Source: Alistipes sp. (GTDB lineage: Bacteria; Bacteroidota; Bacteroidia; Bacteroidales; Rikenellaceae). Taken from it: DNA of 59,611 bases. The DNA is taken from contig JAFYWG010000050.1 of assembly GCA_017558115.1 (NCBI GenBank), positions 1-59,611 on the forward strand. The letters are read 5' to 3'. The number at the start of each line of letters is the position of its first letter. The first letter of the stretch is position 1. The notes beneath the pieces were generated by a model, which did not search any database, was not told where the DNA came from, and saw nothing but the letters and a program-made list of their open reading frames with translations. Positions 5,249 through 59,611 of the stretch are shown in pieces. The translations under genes were made by a program, and so were the position numbers.

Positions 5249-6199
5249 ATGAAAAAACTTATCATGACAGTTGTTGCCCTCATGGGTGCAACAGCACTTT
5301 TTGCTCAGACAGATGTAGTTGCGACATTCCAGCAGGCTACAGCTAACGCAAAGGCTGGTGACTACGCTACTGCTATCTCACAGTTCGAGGCAGTTGTAGA
5401 GGCTGGCTGGGATATCGACGAGCCAGATGCAAACCAGCTCAAGGCTATCCAGGGTTCTAAGAAGTTCATCGTAACATGCTACAACAAGATGGGCGTTGCA
5501 GCAGTTAACGCTAAGGAGTATGAGGCAGCTATCGAGCACTTCACAAATGCTGCTAACTGCGCAGAGCTCTACGAGGATGCTGCAGCTATGAACAAGAACA
5601 AGTCTATGATTGGCCAGGTGTACCAGGTGCAGGGTGCTGATGCGTTCAACTCAGGCGACTATACAACCTCTATCGAGGTGTTCTCTAAGGGTTACGCTGC
5701 TGACCCTCGCAACACAGAGATGGCACTCAACCTCGCTGAGAGCTACTTCCGTAGCGACATGTACCAGGAGGGTATGAAGATCTGCACTAAGATCGCTGGC
5801 ATGAATGCTGATAAGTTCGCAGATGCTATCGCTGAGGCTCAGTCAAAGATGGATATGTACACTAACAACGAGGTTGCTAAGCTCCAGATGGCTAACGACT
5901 ACGACGGCATCATCGCTATGGCTGCTGAGCTCGAGGACGCTGCTTTGGCTGCTAAGATCACTATGCAGGCATACTATGGTAAGAAGGACTTCGGCAAGAT
6001 GGTAGAGTACTCTGCAGTAGCACTCGAGGCTCAGACAACTGACGAGGGTCGCAGCGACATCAACTACTTGCTTGGCGTGGCATACAACGAGATGGGTCAG
6101 TTTGACGCGGCTATCGCAGCTATGCAGAAGGTTACAGCGGGTAACAACGTAGCTAACGCGGCAGCTGTTATCGAGGTTCTTGCTGCACAGAAGAAGTAA
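5249..6199 (+). CDS. Secreted TPR-repeat protein of unknown function
   Basis: 316 aa with a clear Sec signal peptide (approx. 1-19, MKKLIMTVVALMGATALFAQ, cut after A-x-A/Q) and no lipobox, so probably periplasmic. The rest is helical and carries about five to six TPR-like units, for example KAGDYATAISQFEAVVEAG, NAKEYEAAIEHFTNAAN, NSGDYTTSIEVFSKGYA and NEMGQFDAAIAAMQKV. TPRs are protein-docking modules; no enzyme domain is visible. It stands alone between tadA and the convergent upp, with a strong promoter and a terminator. The stop codon runs directly into AATTTATTGTG, similar to the ends of the repeat family described elsewhere. Partner and role are unknown. Confidence 0.8.
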   Translation: MKKLIMTVVALMGATALFAQTDVVATFQQATANAKAGDYATAISQFEAVVEAGWDIDEPDANQLKAIQGSKKFIVTCYNKMGVAAVNAKEYEAAIEHFTNAANCAELYEDAAAMNKNKSMIGQVYQVQGADAFNSGDYTTSIEVFSKGYAADPRNTEMALNLAESYFRSDMYQEGMKICTKIAGMNADKFADAIAEAQSKMDMYTNNEVAKLQMANDYDGIIAMAAELEDAALAAKITMQAYYGKKDFGKMVEYSAVALEAQTTDEGRSDINYLLGVAYNEMGQFDAAIAAMQKVTAGNNVANAAAVIEVLAAQKK

Positions 6200-8335: not shown

Positions 8336-8372
8336 AAGTCCCGCCTAACTTGCGTTAAGCGGGACTTGTTTT
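8336..8372. terminator. Terminator between uraA and rnpB
   Basis: The 9-bp stem AAGTCCCGC/GCGGGACTT (8336-8344, 8359-8367) is followed by GTTTT on the + strand. It ends uraA and, read on the minus strand, lies just below the 3' end of RNase P RNA. Confidence 0.7.
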
Positions 8373-8377
8373 ACAGC

Positions 8378-8764
8378 ATACACTATAAGCCGAGTTCTGT
8401 AACCAACGTCTCGAACCTCGATGGCAGTTACCCGCCATCCTAAGCCCAATAGTTGATCCCTTGTCATTTATCTACTACGGCGATCACTCGCCGTCTCTAG
8501 CAACCTACCCCCCGACATTGGACGAGCAGCCCTTAATTGTCGGTATACATGGTCTTGCAACCCACGAGGTGCACAGCCGAGGAGTATTGCTACCCTCGCG
8601 GTGGGCTCTTACCCCACCTTCTCACCCTTACCACCCGAAGGTGGCGGTTATTTTCTTCTACACTACTATACTCTCACGAGTATCAAGCCGTTAACTTGCG
8701 CGGCGCTCTACGTTGCTCGGACTTTCCTCCCCCACCCTAAGGTGGCAGCGACAAGGCGTATATG
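8378..8764 (-). ncRNA. rnpB: RNase P RNA (class A)
   Basis: Catalytic RNA of RNase P, which removes 5' leaders from tRNA precursors. On the minus strand the 5' region contains GAGGAAAGTCCGAGCA, the conserved P4/CR-I signature. The middle has AAGGGTGAGAAGGTGGGGTA and then AGAGCCCACC. The 3' end has ACAGAACTCGGCTTATAG, the partner strand of P4. Order and spacing fit a class A RNA of about 385 nt. A TATCTTTG box just upstream (8778-8771) sets the 5' end near 8764. The 3' end is an estimate. Short open frames inside this segment are not genes. Confidence 0.95.
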
Positions 8765-8770
8765 CGGGTG

Positions 8771-17818: not shown

Positions 17819-19213
17819 ATGAGAAATCTTTTCAAAGGCTTCGTAGTTGCAACACTTGCTATCGTAGCGATGGCATGTAGCACTTCGGAGACTCCAAAGC
17901 AGCAGGGCGGCAATGGCCTTGCAACACCCGAGTTCAGCGCTAACGCTAACGAGAACTCTATCACAGTAAGCTGGACAAGTGTAGATGGCGCTGCCTACTA
18001 CGAGCTTTGGCTCAACAATGACGAGCACATCAAGACCGACAAGCTCGTACACCGTTTCGACGATCTTAAGTGGGACACTGAGTACACCGTAAACCTTCAG
18101 GCTATCGGCAGTGGCGACAAGAGCTCTGCAGTTGTATCACAGAAGGTTACTATCGCAGCACGCAAGGTACCCGCATACCGCGAGTGGATTCCACAGAACG
18201 GCTCTACAGCGACTGCTATCTCTGACAACGGCCGCTGGGTTGTAGGTTGCTTCGACCGCCAGGGTATGGTCATCGACCTCGACACCGACGAGCTTACACT
18301 TGTCGAGAACTTCGATTGCTTGGATGTTGCAGACAACGGCATTATCGTAGGTGCTACATACGAGGATAGCCAGAATGGTGAGGCTGCAATCTACATTGAC
18401 GGCCAGATCGTTAAGCTCGACCTCAGCGATCTCACTAAATCTAACATGAGCTCACTTACAGCAACAACACCTGACGGCGAGTACATGGTAGGCTGGTGGT
18501 GGGAGTTCGATGAGAGCTCATACTATAGTGGCATCTACGGCTACATCGTACCCTTCGCATACGACATTTTGAAGGATCGTATCACAGTTTTGGAGTGCGG
18601 CGATAACATCTACCCCATCCATGGCGTATCAACCTATGGCGTAGGCCCCGATCGCAACATCGTTGGCGTTGAGCAGTCTGACGCTATGATGGCTGTTGTA
18701 TGGGAGGATGAGTATGCTGACTTCACATACCCCGTATTCGAGTACGACTCTAACTACGTTCCCACACTCACATTCGGTGACACTCAGACTCGTATGACAC
18801 CCAACGGCAAGTATATCTATAGCGTAGCTAAGACATACCCCGACGGCTCTACAGATGTTCAGCAGCCCGCATGCTACGACCTTGAGACTAAGCAGCTCAC
18901 CACATTCCTTGGCATCGGCTCAGTATCAGCAATGACAAACGACGGCGTTGTATTCCTTAACAATGTACCTCTTGGCTACGAGACAGCATACGTAAGCCAC
19001 GTCGACGATCCAGAGACTCAGACACCTATCGTAGAATGGTTGCTTATGAAGCACGAAGTAAACTTGTACGACTACCTCAATGTTGAGGAGAACTCATACG
19101 TAGTTATTGGTGCTTCAGCAGATGGCCGCACTCTCCTTGCACTCGGTTACACTGAGATGGGTCACGTATCAATCGTTATCGACCTCGATGGCGAGCCTAT
19201 GCCCGAGATCTAA
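17819..19213 (+). CDS. Lipoprotein with FN3 domain and propeller-like C-terminal part, unknown
   Basis: 464 aa with a lipobox at Cys20 (LAIVAMAC), so a membrane-anchored lipoprotein. Residues approx. 35-115 form a fibronectin type III domain (SANANENSITVSWTSVDGAA, then WDTEYTVNLQAIGSGD). From approx. 120 on there are repeated short blade-like units with 'ISDNGRWVVGC', 'VADNGIIVGATYED', 'TTPDGEYMVGWWWE' and 'MTPNGKYIYSVAKTY', a pattern shared with HAF-type or beta-propeller repeats. No catalytic motif. It is divergent from the GH13 lipoprotein and ends in a strong terminator. Function unknown; surface binding or adhesion is a guess only. Confidence 0.7.
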   Translation: MRNLFKGFVVATLAIVAMACSTSETPKQQGGNGLATPEFSANANENSITVSWTSVDGAAYYELWLNNDEHIKTDKLVHRFDDLKWDTEYTVNLQAIGSGDKSSAVVSQKVTIAARKVPAYREWIPQNGSTATAISDNGRWVVGCFDRQGMVIDLDTDELTLVENFDCLDVADNGIIVGATYEDSQNGEAAIYIDGQIVKLDLSDLTKSNMSSLTATTPDGEYMVGWWWEFDESSYYSGIYGYIVPFAYDILKDRITVLECGDNIYPIHGVSTYGVGPDRNIVGVEQSDAMMAVVWEDEYADFTYPVFEYDSNYVPTLTFGDTQTRMTPNGKYIYSVAKTYPDGSTDVQQPACYDLETKQLTTFLGIGSVSAMTNDGVVFLNNVPLGYETAYVSHVDDPETQTPIVEWLLMKHEVNLYDYLNVEENSYVVIGASADGRTLLALGYTEMGHVSIVIDLDGEPMPEI

Positions 19214-19230
19214 TCTACAGTTAGCACACT

Positions 19231-19273
19231 AAACTTAAAAGGACAGTTCCATTGGGACTGTCCTTTTAAGTTT
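19231..19273. terminator. Long terminator hairpin after the FN3 lipoprotein
   Basis: The 17-bp stem AAACTTAAAAGGACAGT paired with ACTGTCCTTTTAAGTTT (19231-19247, 19257-19273) has a 9-base loop. The T-rich right arm acts as the T-run. The periodic repeat element follows at once. Confidence 0.75.
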
Positions 19274-19399
19274 GTAAAAATGTGAGTTTAGGGAACTTAA
19301 AGAGTTTAGGGAGTTTAAAAAATTTAGGGAGCTTAAGTGGCGAAGTATGTTGCGCACTAAACTCCCTAATCTTTCTAAACTCTCTTTCTCACTTTTTAC
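19274..19399. repeat. Inverted repeat element with 9-base internal period
   Basis: The ends GTAAAAATGTGAG and CTCACTTTTTAC are inverted repeats. Inside, the left arm is a run of 9-base units: TTTAGGGAA, CTTAAAGAG, TTTAGGGAG, TTTAAAAAA, TTTAGGGAG. The right arm has the complementary run with the same period (CTAAACTCC, CTAATCTTT, CTAAACTCT). It fills the gap up to the thioesterase stop at 19401. A related element is at 30916-31001. Confidence 0.65.
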
Positions 19400-30915: not shown

Positions 30916-31001
30916 TTTAGGGAGTTTAAGGAATTTAGTGAGTATAAGGATTATAGAGAAATATATACTCTAAACTCCCTAAGTTCCTTAAGCTCCCTAA
31001 A
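30916..31001. repeat. Inverted element with 9-base period, second copy type
   Basis: The left arm runs TTTAGGGAG, TTTAAGGAA, TTTAGTGAG in 9-base steps. The right arm, read backwards, repeats TTTAGGGAGC, TTAAGGAAC, TTAGGGAGT. It forms a long imperfect hairpin 14 bases below the mntP stop and is related to 19274-19399. It may act as an mRNA end or stabiliser. Confidence 0.6.
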
Positions 31002-31037
31002 TTCTTTAATCAGAAACAATAATTAGCACCGAGACCC

Positions 31038-31080
31038 AATTTCGTAGGAGAAGGTAGTAGATGCAACGCTCGGCAAAAAA
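31038..31080 (+). repeat. Half copy of the GTAC-loop palindromic element
   Basis: Matches the left arm of the copy at 31230-31359 almost base for base (AATTTCG-AGGAGAAGGTAG, then TAGATGCAACGCTCGGCAAA) but then stops. It is framed by the direct repeat AATTAGCACCGAGAC at 31021 and 31085. No right arm or central stem is present. Confidence 0.6.
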
Positions 31081-31101
31081 CATTAATTAGCACCGAGACA
31101 C

Positions 31102-31228
31102 AATTTCTTGTCAGAGTGGTGCTAATTTGACGCCGATAAAGAGAAAGAGCGGATGGGACATACTAAGCGTATTTCCCATTCGCTCTTTGGATTGAGGTGG
31201 CAAAGTAGCGCCACAATCACAAGAAATT
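31102..31228 (+). repeat. GTAC-loop palindromic element, copy 1
   Basis: 127 bp. Terminal inverted repeats AATTTCTTGT (31102-31111) and ACAAGAAATT (31219-31228). The arms pair through GTGGTGC/GCGCCAC. The central stem AAAGAGCGGATGGGA/TCCCATTCGCTCTTT is closed by an ATAC-TAAGC-GTAT tip. One G.T in the central stem is a wobble only on the + strand. No ORF inside. Confidence 0.75.
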
Positions 31229-31229
31229 C

Positions 31230-31359
31230 AATTTCGCAGGAGAAGGTAGTAGATGCAACGCTCGGCAAAAAAAATGCGGATGAGCTGTACTAAAGCGTAC
31301 TGCTCATTCGCATTTTCTTTTGTTAGCGGCAGCAGATGCTACCTTATCGTGCGAAATTT
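31230..31359 (+). repeat. GTAC-loop palindromic element, copy 2
   Basis: 130 bp, separated from copy 1 by one base. Terminal repeats AATTTCGCA/TGCGAAATT; next AAGGTAG/CTACCTT; then TAGATG facing CAGATG, which gives a tandem G.A/A.G mismatch between A-T pairs. The central stem is AAAATGCGGATGAGC/GCTCATTCGCATTTT with a GTAC-TAAAGC-GTAC tip. Its right end overlaps the TAA stop of the small gene at 31358-31651. Confidence 0.78.
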
Positions 31360-31651
31360 ACATGCACTGGGTGATATCCCACACAAATGCACGCGAACCC
31401 TGCTGCTGCGTGGTCGAATCAATCTCGCGTACTGCATCGAGCAACACGGGAATCTTCTCATCCTCAACGATAGCGAGGATAGAGGTGTTCATTGAGGGCC
31501 ACGCGTGTGTGCCGTAGTGGGGCTCACCATCGTAAGATCCACGACCCTCGGTGAGTGCCCAGCGTGTGAAGCCGCGCACGCCATTGTCATCGAGCATCTT
31601 GTTTACACGGTCGGTAAGTGCCTGGTTGTATGATAAAAAGAATGCTTTCAT
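31358..31651 (-). CDS. PG0541-type transporter-associated protein
   Basis: 97 aa, ferredoxin-like/PII-like small cytoplasmic protein (MKAFFLSYNQALTDRVNKML, NTSILAIVEDEKIPVLLDAV). It is the last gene of the tetR-tolC-mfp-rnd operon, in the same order as PG0541 behind the xepCAB pump of Porphyromonas gingivalis; that comparison comes from memory of the locus. Role unknown, probably tied to the pump. The stop codon TAA (31360-31358) shares bases with the end of the repeat at 31230-31359, so the gene ends exactly where the element begins. Confidence 0.72.
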   Translation of the reverse strand: MKAFFLSYNQALTDRVNKMLDDNGVRGFTRWALTEGRGSYDGEPHYGTHAWPSMNTSILAIVEDEKIPVLLDAVREIDSTTQQQGSRAFVWDITQCM

Positions 31652-45680: not shown

Positions 45681-45708
45681 CCTGAACGCCTTCTACAACG
45701 TACGACCA

Positions 45709-45822
45709 ATTTGTTGTCAGAAGTCGTGAGATGTGGTGCATCACAAAAGAAACCAACCAAGGACATATAGTCTACGCATTATTTCTTGTCAGAGTGGTGT
45801 GGTAGTGGTAAACCACAACAAT
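45709..45822 (+). repeat. Fragments of the GTAC-loop element family
   Basis: AATTTGTTGTCAGAAGTCG, then GAGATGTGG (45709 on) and ATTTCTTGTCAGAGTGGTG (45781 on) match left arms of the element family, each without its central stem and right arm. They form a stack of truncated units in front of copy 3. Confidence 0.5.
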
Positions 45823-45953
45823 AATTTATCGACAGAAGGGGTTAGATTTGGCCTATCACAAAAGAGACTACCCAGGGATAGTACTTTGACGTACAGCCCT
45901 GGGTAGTCTACTTTTAGGGATAGGTCGAAGATGACCTCTTATCTCGATAAATT
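45823..45953 (+). repeat. GTAC-loop palindromic element, copy 3
   Basis: 131 bp. Terminal repeats AATTTATCGA (45823-45832) and TCGATAAATT (45944-45953). The arms GGGGTTAGATTTGGCCTAT and ATAGGTCGAAGATGACCTC pair along 19 positions with four G.U and one tandem G.A/A.G. The central stem GACTACCCAGGG/CCCTGGGTAGTC is perfect, tip GTAC-TTTGAC-GTAC. Its end shares two bases with the tnaA stop codon. Confidence 0.8.
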
Positions 45954-47325
45954 ACAAACGCTCGAGCTTAACAGTAAAGTGACGCATCAACTCAGTCTCC
46001 CATACGATCTTCACACCGCGAGTGATCTCGTGACGACGATCGTAAACATTCTTAAGCGCTGCAGCGATAACGTCCATGTGGTTGTTAGTGTATGAACGAC
46101 GTGCGATGCAGAGACGAAGGAGGTCGAGACCACCGAAGCGGTTCTCACGAGTGATAGGATCACGGTCAGCAAGGATGTAACCGATCTCGCAACCACGTAC
46201 ACCAGCCTCGAGGTAGAGCTCGATAGCGAGTGTCTGTGCGGGGAACTCCTCCTTAGGAATGTTAGAGAGAACCTTGTCAGCATCTACGAAGAGGGCGTGA
46301 CCACCAACAGGACGCTGGTAAGGAATGCCGTACTCGTCGAGCTTAGCTGCGAGGTACTGTACCTGCTTGATACGAGTCTCGATAGTGTCGAGCTCAGTGT
46401 TCTCGTCGAGACCTACTGCCAAAGCAGCCATATCACGACCGTTCATACCACCGTATGTCAAGAAGCCCTCGAAGGGGATGCAGAAACGCTTAGCACCCTC
46501 GTACCAGTCCTCGTGACGTGTAGCGATGAAACCACCCATGTTTACGAGACCGTCCTTCTTTGATGACATTGTCATACCGTCAGCGTAAGAGAACATCTCC
46601 TTGCAGATCTCCTTGATAGTCTTATCTGCATAACCCTCCTCACGAGTCTTGATGAAGTATGCGTTCTCTACGAAGCGAGCTGAGTCGAAAACGACGCGCT
46701 TGCCATACTTGTCAGCGATAGCACGTACGTCGCGAAGGTTCTTCATAGATACGGGCTGACCACCTGCTGTGTTGTTTGTTACAGTAACGATGATGAAAGG
46801 AATCTTCTCAGCGTTCTCTGCCAAAGCCTTCTCCAACTTTGCGCAGTCTACCTCACCCTTGAAGGGAATCTCGAGCTGAGTATCCTTAGCTGCATCGATT
46901 GTGCAGTCCAAAGCTGTAGCCTTACGGAACTCGATGTGACCCTTAGTAGTGTCGAAGTGTGAGTTACCGGGGATGATATCACCAGCCTTTACGAGGTGTG
47001 AGAACAACACGTTCTCAGCAGCACGACCCTGGTGTGTAGGAATGACGTACTCGAAGCCTGTGATAGCGCCGATAGTATCCTTAAGCTGGAAGAATGACTT
47101 TGAACCAGCATAAGCCTCGTCACCAGTCATCATAGCAGCCCACTGACGGTCGCTCATAGCACCTGTACCTGAGTCAGTCAAACAGTCGATATAAACCTGC
47201 TCTGACTTCAAGCCGAAGAGGTTGTAGTGTGCCTCCTTGAGCCACTGCTCACGCTCTGCACGTGTGCTCTTCTTCAAAGGCTCAACCATCTTAATTCGAT
47301 ACGCTTCTGCAAATGGAATTTCCAT
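45952..47325 (-). CDS. tnaA: Tryptophanase (indole-forming)
   Basis: PLP enzyme splitting tryptophan into indole, pyruvate and ammonia (457 aa). It opens MEIPFAEAYRIKMVEPLKKS and has YIDCLTDSGTGAMSDRQWAA. The PLP lysine is in the SYADGMTMSSKKDGLVNMGG region. VFDSARFVENAYFIK and RGCEIGYILADRDP are of the tryptophanase type; tyrosine phenol-lyase has DATRC and a different 'MERG' region there. Single gene with its own promoter (47432-47425). The TAA stop lies on the edge of the copy 3 repeat. Indole made here could compete with the Ior pathway for tryptophan. Confidence 0.92.
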   Translation of the reverse strand: MEIPFAEAYRIKMVEPLKKSTRAEREQWLKEAHYNLFGLKSEQVYIDCLTDSGTGAMSDRQWAAMMTGDEAYAGSKSFFQLKDTIGAITGFEYVIPTHQGRAAENVLFSHLVKAGDIIPGNSHFDTTKGHIEFRKATALDCTIDAAKDTQLEIPFKGEVDCAKLEKALAENAEKIPFIIVTVTNNTAGGQPVSMKNLRDVRAIADKYGKRVVFDSARFVENAYFIKTREEGYADKTIKEICKEMFSYADGMTMSSKKDGLVNMGGFIATRHEDWYEGAKRFCIPFEGFLTYGGMNGRDMAALAVGLDENTELDTIETRIKQVQYLAAKLDEYGIPYQRPVGGHALFVDADKVLSNIPKEEFPAQTLAIELYLEAGVRGCEIGYILADRDPITRENRFGGLDLLRLCIARRSYTNNHMDVIAAALKNVYDRRHEITRGVKIVWETELMRHFTVKLERL

Positions 47326-59437: not shown

Positions 59438-59563
59438 ATTTCTTGTCAGAAGGCGGTAGATGTGGTCTCGATAAAGAAATAAACCCAGATGGGTAGTACT
59501 TGGCGTACGTCCCATTTGGGCTTATGATTGAGAGGCCGCAGATGCTGCCTTATCACAAGAAAT
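59438..59563 (+). repeat. GTAC-loop palindromic element, copy 4
   Basis: 126 bp. Terminal repeats ATTTCTTGT/ACAAGAAAT. Arms AAGGCGGTAGATGTGGTCTC and GAGGCCGCAGATGCTGCCTT pair with a tandem G.A/A.G in the AGAT box and several G.U. Central stem AAACCCAGATGGG/CCCATTTGGGCTT with a GTAC-TTGGC-GTAC tip. Not directly at a stop codon within view. Confidence 0.78.
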
Positions 59564-59576
59564 GATTTGAGGTTAG

Positions 59577-59611
59577 AGTGGTGCTAATGTGGCGCTGACA
59601 CGAAAAAGCCA
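59577..59611 (+). repeat. Start of another element arm, cut by the window end
   Basis: AGTGGTGCTAATGTGGCGCT followed by GACACGAAAAAGCCA matches the left-arm type of copy 1 (GTGGTGCTAATTTGACGCC). The last 20 bases repeat the segment at about 59396-59415. The rest lies outside the window. Confidence 0.45.

What the first reader, a model, noticed from the sequence alone, without database searches (positions are those of the whole stretch)
31102..31359. A family of 126-131-bp palindromic elements with a variable but always paired central stem
Two copies lie one base apart here and further copies are at 45823-45953 and 59438-59563, all in the same + orientation. They share inverted ends starting (A)ATTT, an arm with AAGG...AGAT, and a GTAC-loop-GTAC tip. 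The central stem differs in each (AAAGAGCGGATGGGA; AAAATGCGGATGAGC; GACTACCCAGGG; AAACCCAGATGGG), yet both sides change together. Such covariation inside one genome means the fold, not the sequence, is kept. No ORF is inside. It could be a non-autonomous mobile element, a structured RNA or both. I know no named family that fits.
Basis: partly seen in the sequence, partly recalled or inferred. Interest (0 to 1): 0.8.

Follow-up and report, generated by a model that had tools for sequence, protein, structure and literature searches.

The report
Palindromes that sit on stop codons
Gut bacteria of the genus Alistipes carry many copies of a 125-base hairpin-forming DNA element that mostly sits directly behind the stop codons of genes, above all genes read in the direction of chromosome replication, where it seems to have taken over from the gene's own transcription terminator.

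Summary
The genome has 87 distinct sites, and 15 of 41 genomes searched, all in one genus, carry the family; named hosts are Alistipes/Rikenellaceae MAGs. The fold is conserved by covariation: 36 of 43 pairs have both-side changes in 33 copies, and 86 copies from other genomes repeat it. Only one strand fits: G·T outnumbers A·C 368 to 32.

New here: 91 of 129 copies have their right end at a stop codon, against 9 left ends; 53 abut it exactly. These are mostly leading-strand genes: 69 of 306 leading gene ends versus 9 of 291 lagging. Only 3 of 73 such genes keep another canonical terminator nearby, versus 206 of 516 controls. At orthologous stops relatives have ordinary terminators, or subtypes mostly as unlike as random pairs. 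Four of seven partial copies keep stem and T-run behind a stop without an intact distal arm.

Best reading: a mobile hairpin that colonises stop codons and becomes the gene's terminator. Mobility is inferred; no enzyme was found. New variant of a known kind.

The parts
31103..31227 (+). full element, second of a tandem pair (distal from the gene 31358-31651)
   Evidence: R1 match 111.7 bits; RNA fold -61.8 kcal/mol
31231..31357 (+). full element; its right end abuts the stop codon of the - strand gene 31358-31651 (P-II domain)
   Evidence: R1 match 91.9 bits; ORF list; Pfam P-II, just above cut-off; orthologous element in G056 C4:35425-35550 with both-side changes
45824..45952 (+). full element; its right end abuts stop codon TAA of the - strand gene 45952-47325 (beta-eliminating lyase)
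   Evidence: R1 match 106.5 bits; Pfam; of seven relatives of 88-93% identity whose stop could be judged, three carry a full element after this stop (G017, G056, G011), one an element with a changed distal end (G051), one a truncated one (G022), two none (G054, G004)
59438..59563 (+). full element near the contig end; gene on its right not seen
   Evidence: R1 match 129.2 bits
6199..6310 (-). degenerate copy; its right end lies at the stop of the + strand gene 5249-6199 (TPR protein)
   Evidence: R1 27.3 bits; ORF list; Pfam TPR
31037..31083 (+). left-arm remnant, 96% identical to 31229-31275, distal to the pair
   Evidence: direct repeat D12
45708..45763 (+). left-half remnant, distal to the 45824 copy
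   Evidence: direct repeat D2; 75% identity to the 45823 copy
45781..45809 (+). left-end remnant
   Evidence: direct repeat D11
59565..59604 (+). left-end-like remnant beside the 59438 copy
   Evidence: direct repeat D5

Best explanation
The elements are dispersed, probably mobile, imperfect palindromes of about 125 bp that come to lie in one fixed orientation directly behind stop codons. In exact cases the element's last base pair takes in the third base of the stop codon. They do so mostly at genes transcribed in the direction of replication. Once there, the central A-tract, stem and T-tract acts as the gene's intrinsic terminator, in the gene direction and probably often in both, and the native terminator is lost. 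Repeated insertion at the same boundary pushes older copies away from the gene, where they decay. Copies that lose distal pairing stay on as plain terminators. The fold is kept on the strand opposite to the mRNA, which points to a DNA-level step (a folded single strand used in mobilisation) as the reason for the outer arms.

Shown: fold conservation and its strand, stop-codon adjacency, leading-strand bias, lack of other canonical terminators, different subtypes at orthologous stops, retained cores. Inferred: mobility, order of insertion, terminator activity, the single-strand step. Unknown: the enzyme.
For: Fold; strand: G·T 368 vs A·C 32, + strand more stable in 33 of 33 and in 5 of 5 as ssDNA. 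Stop adjacency: right end at the end of an open frame of 60 codons or more in 91 of 129 (G003 48/64, G056 24/41, G017 19/24), exact (0 or -1) in 53, left end 9 of 129; random intergenic positions 13.2% and 0.9%. G056 C1, not among the 129: 8 of 13. In a pooled, overlapping set 162 of 214; of the 63 tallied from named genomes other than G000, G003, G056 and G017, 43 are exact. Stop third base pairs with the far flank in 16 of 17 exact cases. Polarity: 69 of 306 leading versus 9 of 291 lagging gene ends, opposite orientation at a stop 1 of 597; rplB of G056 lies on the strand called leading, and that contig has 12 + and 1 - copies. Terminator: another canonical terminator beyond the element in 3 of 73 versus 206 of 516 control ends; T-run of at least 4 in 9 behind the core in gene sense in 74 of 86. 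Turnover: of 64 distinct filled ortholog pairs only 5 exceed the 95th percentile of random pairs. Distal array copies have weaker terminal stems, 6.65 versus 7.5 of 8 (p 4e-4). Retained cores.
Against: No clean empty/filled pair with both flanks aligned up to the joint was found, so insertion itself is not shown. No candidate enzyme: Y1 transposase in 0 of 16 genus genomes, no long copy identified as autonomous in the sequences scanned. In the gene's mRNA the conserved G·T pairs become A·C mismatches, which is odd for a terminator stem; my strict terminator scan calls only 2 of 89 element cores canonical. Unpaired columns are not more conserved than paired ones (0.69 vs 0.74). Of 129 copies 38 did not pass the stop test; 20 of these are distal array copies (none of the 20 passed), leaving 18 unexplained. 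Fourteen of 129 are oriented against the contig skew. G003 C65 has only - copies but a slightly negative skew in the one stretch measured. nusA-infB on G003 C40 lies on the strand I call lagging.
Confidence: 0.55

Rival explanations
1. Immobile cis-acting RNA structures: terminators or 3'-end protectors kept at each gene by selection, with the family spread by vertical descent and recombination between copies.
For: Elements share orthologous stops between species of 80-96% gene identity, a few as clear vertical copies with both-side changes; element-bearing genes lack other terminators.
Against: No match in 10 of 25 genus genomes tested; filled orthologous stops mostly hold elements no more alike than random pairs; tandem arrays and distal remnants; pairing kept on the antisense strand; rare at lagging genes, which need terminators too.
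Confidence: 0.2
2. REP/REPIN-like elements mobilised by a RAYT (Y1) transposase.
For: Intergenic palindromes near gene 3' ends; REP termini can supply the TAG stop (PMC3733652, section 15 read); polarity relative to replication is expected for IS200/IS605-type elements (recalled).
Against: No Y1_Tnp in 16 of 16 genus genomes searched while 8 of 9 outside the genus had it; no GTAG tag at the ends; one 125-bp hairpin instead of 20-40 bp units; the folding strand is the leading-strand template, opposite to the IS200/IS605 expectation (recalled).
Confidence: 0.1
3. attC-like recombination sites of an integron-type system.
For: Structure kept over sequence, folding strand antisense to the gene upstream, position behind the stop codon (attC layout recalled), folding strand on the leading-strand template as in 25 of 30 sedentary integrons (PMC5371416, passages).
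Against: Integron integrase model over cut-off in 0 of 16 genus genomes; the sub-cut-off matches found in all 25 genomes are also found in all 14 control genomes. No R-box seen by eye in the element ends; the elements lie at scattered genes, not in one cassette array.
Confidence: 0.04
4. Covariation is neutral: arms are kept complementary by hairpin-templated repair or by exchange of whole stems between copies, not by selection.
For: Complementarity reaches the stop codon's third base; central stems look exchanged as blocks between copies (by eye); unpaired columns are on average no more conserved than paired ones, and the 2x2 loop is only 63-76% conserved.
Against: The 3x3 loop (C·C, A-T, G·A) is 93-100% conserved in 86 copies, so its two mismatches are kept; the G·T over A·C excess is strand-specific.
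Confidence: 0.11

Closest known systems
REP / BIME / REPIN palindromes (GTAG and CGTC super-families, PMC3733652)
   Same: Many-copy intergenic palindromes close to gene 3' ends; GTAG termini can provide TAG stops; CGTC families lack a known transposase and most end in CCA; G003 copies often show CGTC and CCA near the left end.
   Different: One 125-bp hairpin with outer arms and terminator-like core; CGT is paired here; fixed orientation to the gene and bias relative to replication; no Y1 enzyme in the 16 genus genomes searched.
Bacterial MITEs (bcr1, ERIC, NEMIS, named in PMC3733652; BrickBuilt of Porphyromonas, PMC5771137 passages)
   Same: 70-300 bp, inverted ends, no coding capacity; bcr elements are part of UTRs (PMC3446304 passages).
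   Different: No consistent target duplication; stop-codon adjacency; ends vary but stay paired; no parent IS found in what was scanned.
Intrinsic transcription terminators
   Same: A-tract, stem, T-tract; found where relatives have ordinary terminators.
   Different: Forms a dispersed family with outer arms, arrays and remnants; stem has conserved mismatches in the mRNA sense.
Integron attC sites
   Same: Fold on the strand antisense to the gene and sequence-tolerant (recalled); leading-strand-template polarity in most sedentary integrons.
   Different: No integrase over cut-off in the genus, no cassette array, no R-boxes seen by eye.

Membership tests
REP/REPIN-RAYT | Y1 (RAYT) transposase in the host | tested here: not met
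   0 of 16 genus genomes searched; 8 of 9 genomes outside the genus positive
REP/REPIN-RAYT | unpaired GTAG or CGTC tag at one end | tested here: not met
   own-genome copies mostly have TGTC, G003 copies mostly CGTC with CGT inside the terminal stem (read by eye)
MITE | terminal inverted repeats, no coding capacity | tested here: met
MITE | target-site duplication | tested here: not met
   base counts at 64 G003 copies: left flank tends to CCA, right flank to TTA (the stop codon); no consistent direct duplication; single copies not tested by script
MITE | autonomous relative with the same ends | tested here: inconclusive
   none identified in part of 3.3 Mb with a strict end pattern; whole genomes not scanned
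integron attC | integron integrase | tested here: not met
   0 of 16 genus genomes over cut-off
integron attC | R-box core sites | tested here: inconclusive
   not seen by eye in the ends; no attC model available
intrinsic terminator | stem followed by T-tract in gene direction | tested here: met
   at least 4 T in 9 in 74 of 86; but a strict canonical scan passes only 2 of 89
intrinsic terminator | terminates transcription | not testable with these tools
   needs RNA data
Rfam families | match above gathering score | tested here: not met

The most novel reading that the evidence does not exclude
A structure-guided mobile element that targets translation stop codons as such (TAA, TAG and TGA) on leading-strand genes, by an unknown enzyme that reads a folded strand rather than a sequence. 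It spreads because it supplies a terminator, so that hosts become dependent on it: a portable, addictive terminator.
Probability: 0.3. Interest if true: 0.9.

Novelty: new variant of a known kind. Interest (0 to 1): 0.72.

Why it matters
It would show a mobile element family whose landing rule is functional (the stop codon of a leading-strand gene) rather than a sequence. It would also show a route by which gene terminators are replaced and turned over within a genus. It makes testable how selfish palindromes become transcription signals, and gives a natural set of hundreds of covarying hairpins for asking which strand and which molecule selection reads.

Tried and rejected
REPIN-RAYT (no Y1 transposase). 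Integron attC. Known RNA family. Carriage by phages, plasmids or viral contigs (none; one query or pattern each). An autonomous copy with a gene inside the arms: five arm pairs longer than 150 bp passed; four are 202-376 bp and were not looked at further, and the 5.75-kb one has coordinates that fit two separate elements. The idea that gene-strand bias alone explains the orientation: on the seven contigs the strand called leading carries 43-67% of coding bases, while lagging ends have few elements; on the smaller C7b stretch of G003 it carries 32%. Simple TA-target insertion: TGA stops are used exactly too, in 5 cases. Canonical terminator scans do not see the window's elements and pass only 2 of 89 others. 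Paper searches that returned nothing of use; led to papers of which I saw passages. No statement that the family is unpublished goes beyond these searches.

Limits of my counts: genes were called by a crude longest-ORF script. The stop test takes stops whose distance is -18 to +17 (its printed label says -15 to 20) and needs an open frame, not a start codon. Leading strand means the sign of GC skew of a contig, checked once with rplB; G003 C65 disagrees weakly. In one search the ends on G003 C40/C3/C57/C15, G056 C4/C10 and G017 C6 were used; control ends were searched for 150 bp, element ends for 200 bp beyond the element. One search was capped at 150 candidates; one search used stricter filters and some genomes are incomplete. 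Ortholog pairs are enriched for filled sites because many sequences in that set were fetched by their element; several pairs share one gene and some are counted in both directions. The scan left out the own-genome loci other than the window and the loci fetched as relatives. One search pooled named loci, the window and three genomes; three named records belong to the same genomes (JAFTOU, SUZK, JAGBTQ), so its 214 elements overlap those. Of the seven core-only sites in the own genome five were looked at, with two degenerate full ones added.

Full report
What was checked. The four copies are in the window at the stated places; each folds into one hairpin of about 125 nt. A first alignment of 33 copies from the same genome gave a consensus fold of 43 pairs, 36 of which have copies with both sides changed. 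With that fold 95.1% of cells are paired, and the covariation score is 0.533 against 0.189 in 500 shuffles and 0.08-0.11 for slid partners. A model built from it was then used on 80 loci from other genomes. Eighty-six copies at E 2e-17 or better gave 96.7% paired, 34 of 43 pairs with both-side changes and a score of 0.617 against 0.188. That second alignment is fitted to the model and leans towards it.

Extent. After merging both-strand hits, the genome (1.88 Mb, 84.9% complete) has 87 distinct sites at E 0.1 or better, 74 of them at 50 bits or more. Of 41 genomes searched, 15 have matches, all among the 25 of the same genus; 0 of 16 others do. G003 gave 147 matches with 150 candidates scored. 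No hit in viral contigs, plasmids or phages.

Which strand folds. Written as in the window, wobble pairs G·T outnumber A·C 368 to 32 in 86 copies, and the + strand is the more stable RNA in 33 of 33 (mean -68.3 versus -52.3) and the more stable ssDNA in 5 of 5. Selection, or whatever keeps the arms paired, acts on that strand.

Where they lie. In G003, G056 (C4, C10) and G017 (C6) I tested 129 copies for an open frame of at least 60 codons ending within -18 to +17 of each end. The right end passes in 91, the left end in 9; distance 0 or -1 in 53. Random intergenic positions pass in 13.2% and are exact in 0.9%. G056 C1, not among the 129, gives 8 of 13. In a pooled set that adds the named loci and the window and overlaps those genomes, 162 of 214 pass; of 63 tallied from other named genomes 43 are exact. 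TAA, TAG and TGA are all used in G003. In exact cases the third base of the stop pairs with the base beyond the far end: A with T in 12 of 13, G with C in 4 of 4. Of the 38 that fail, 20 are distal members of arrays, none of which passed; the other 18 include a five-copy variant in G056 C4 with its own flanks.

Polarity. Contigs with + copies mostly have negative GC skew and those with - copies positive; G003 C65, with - copies, is -0.008 in the one stretch measured. On the seven contigs surveyed, leading gene ends with an element are 38 of 133 (G003), 14 of 42 (G017) and 17 of 131 (G056); lagging ends 1 of 100, 4 of 50 and 4 of 141. The ribosomal gene rplB of G056 C1 lies on the strand called leading. 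Against this, nusA-infB on G003 C40 lies on the other strand.

Terminator role. Behind the central stem in gene sense there are at least 4 T in 9 nt in 74 of 86 copies; on the other strand 65 of 86. Of 73 element-abutting genes without a tandem copy, 3 have a canonical terminator in the 200 bp beyond, against 206 of 516 control gene ends within 150 bp. At orthologous stops without an element, ordinary terminators are often seen. Seven partial or degenerate copies of the own genome were examined. In four of them a long frame (198-454 codons) ends directly before a left part and the T-run stem, without an intact distal arm: C24, C37 and C17 are core-only and C15 is weakened. C23 shows the same layout but its frame is only 24 codons; C16 has a 45-codon frame and a different left part; C5 is a degenerate full-length copy. 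Two orthologous stops show the proximal part and T-run stem with the distal arm lost (G022) or degraded (G056 C1:98997); a third (G003 C40:233724) has an element-like start and a short perfect stem with eight T, a less certain derivative.

Turnover. Of 64 distinct pairs of filled orthologous stops, the two elements are mostly as unlike as random pairs (random median 0.70); 5 exceed the random 95th percentile of 0.82. At the 45952 gene, seven relatives of 88-93% identity could be judged. G017, G056 and G011 carry full elements, G000 another, and G051 one with a changed distal end. G022 has a truncated one; G054 and G004 have none. An eighth, G041, is cut off by its contig end. In arrays the distal copies have poorer terminal stems, 6.65 versus 7.78 (proximal) and 7.45 (single) of 8. 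The difference in folding energy is weaker (p 0.06).

Points against selection on the fold. Unpaired columns are not more conserved than paired ones (0.69 versus 0.74), and the 2x2 loop is 63-76% conserved; the 3x3 loop is 93-100% conserved.

What would move it is unknown. Y1 transposase is absent in 16 of 16 genus genomes searched, integron integrase is below cut-off in all 16, and the scanned sequences hold no long arm-flanked copy that I could identify as autonomous. The published facts used are from PMC3733652 (passages and section 15), PMC5371416 (passages), PMC3446304 (passages) and PMC5771137 (passages). PMC2267715 was searched for passages and added nothing decisive.

Judgement. The anatomy, position and polarity are shown. 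That the element ends transcription is likely, and that it moves is inferred from its patchy presence, arrays and subtype replacement. It works like a portable terminator and resembles REP and MITE palindromes, but fails the tested defining features of RAYT-REPs and, for the integrase, of integron attC sites.

Noticed in passing
G056 C10:87483-87602, C10:197269-197388, C4:343142-343261: Related hairpins with other arms (AATTTTCGATTTT-like) also start directly behind a stop codon; perhaps a sister family with the same landing rule.
   Followed up: partly
G056 C4:90895, 188384, 204044, 251269, 35844: Five copies with nearly the same ends and flanks that do not abut a long frame; a separate composite repeat.
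   Followed up: no
window 31019-31036 and 31084-31101: A module AATTAGCACCGAGAC(C/A)CA precedes element left ends; similar sequence lies beside other copies, and in G003 a longer left-flank module (TTGCACC...TTGCACCCA) is frequent.
   Followed up: partly
window 19231-19273: A 21-bp inverted repeat, 95% complementary with 1 nt between arms, behind the + strand ORF ending at 19213.
   Followed up: no
window 19284-19385 and 30916-31009: Low-complexity intergenic repeats (TTTAGGGAGTTTAAGG and its complement) that can pair with each other; the second lies just before the element pair at 31103.
   Followed up: no
window 8370-8767: RNase P RNA, bacterial class A, on the - strand.
   Followed up: no
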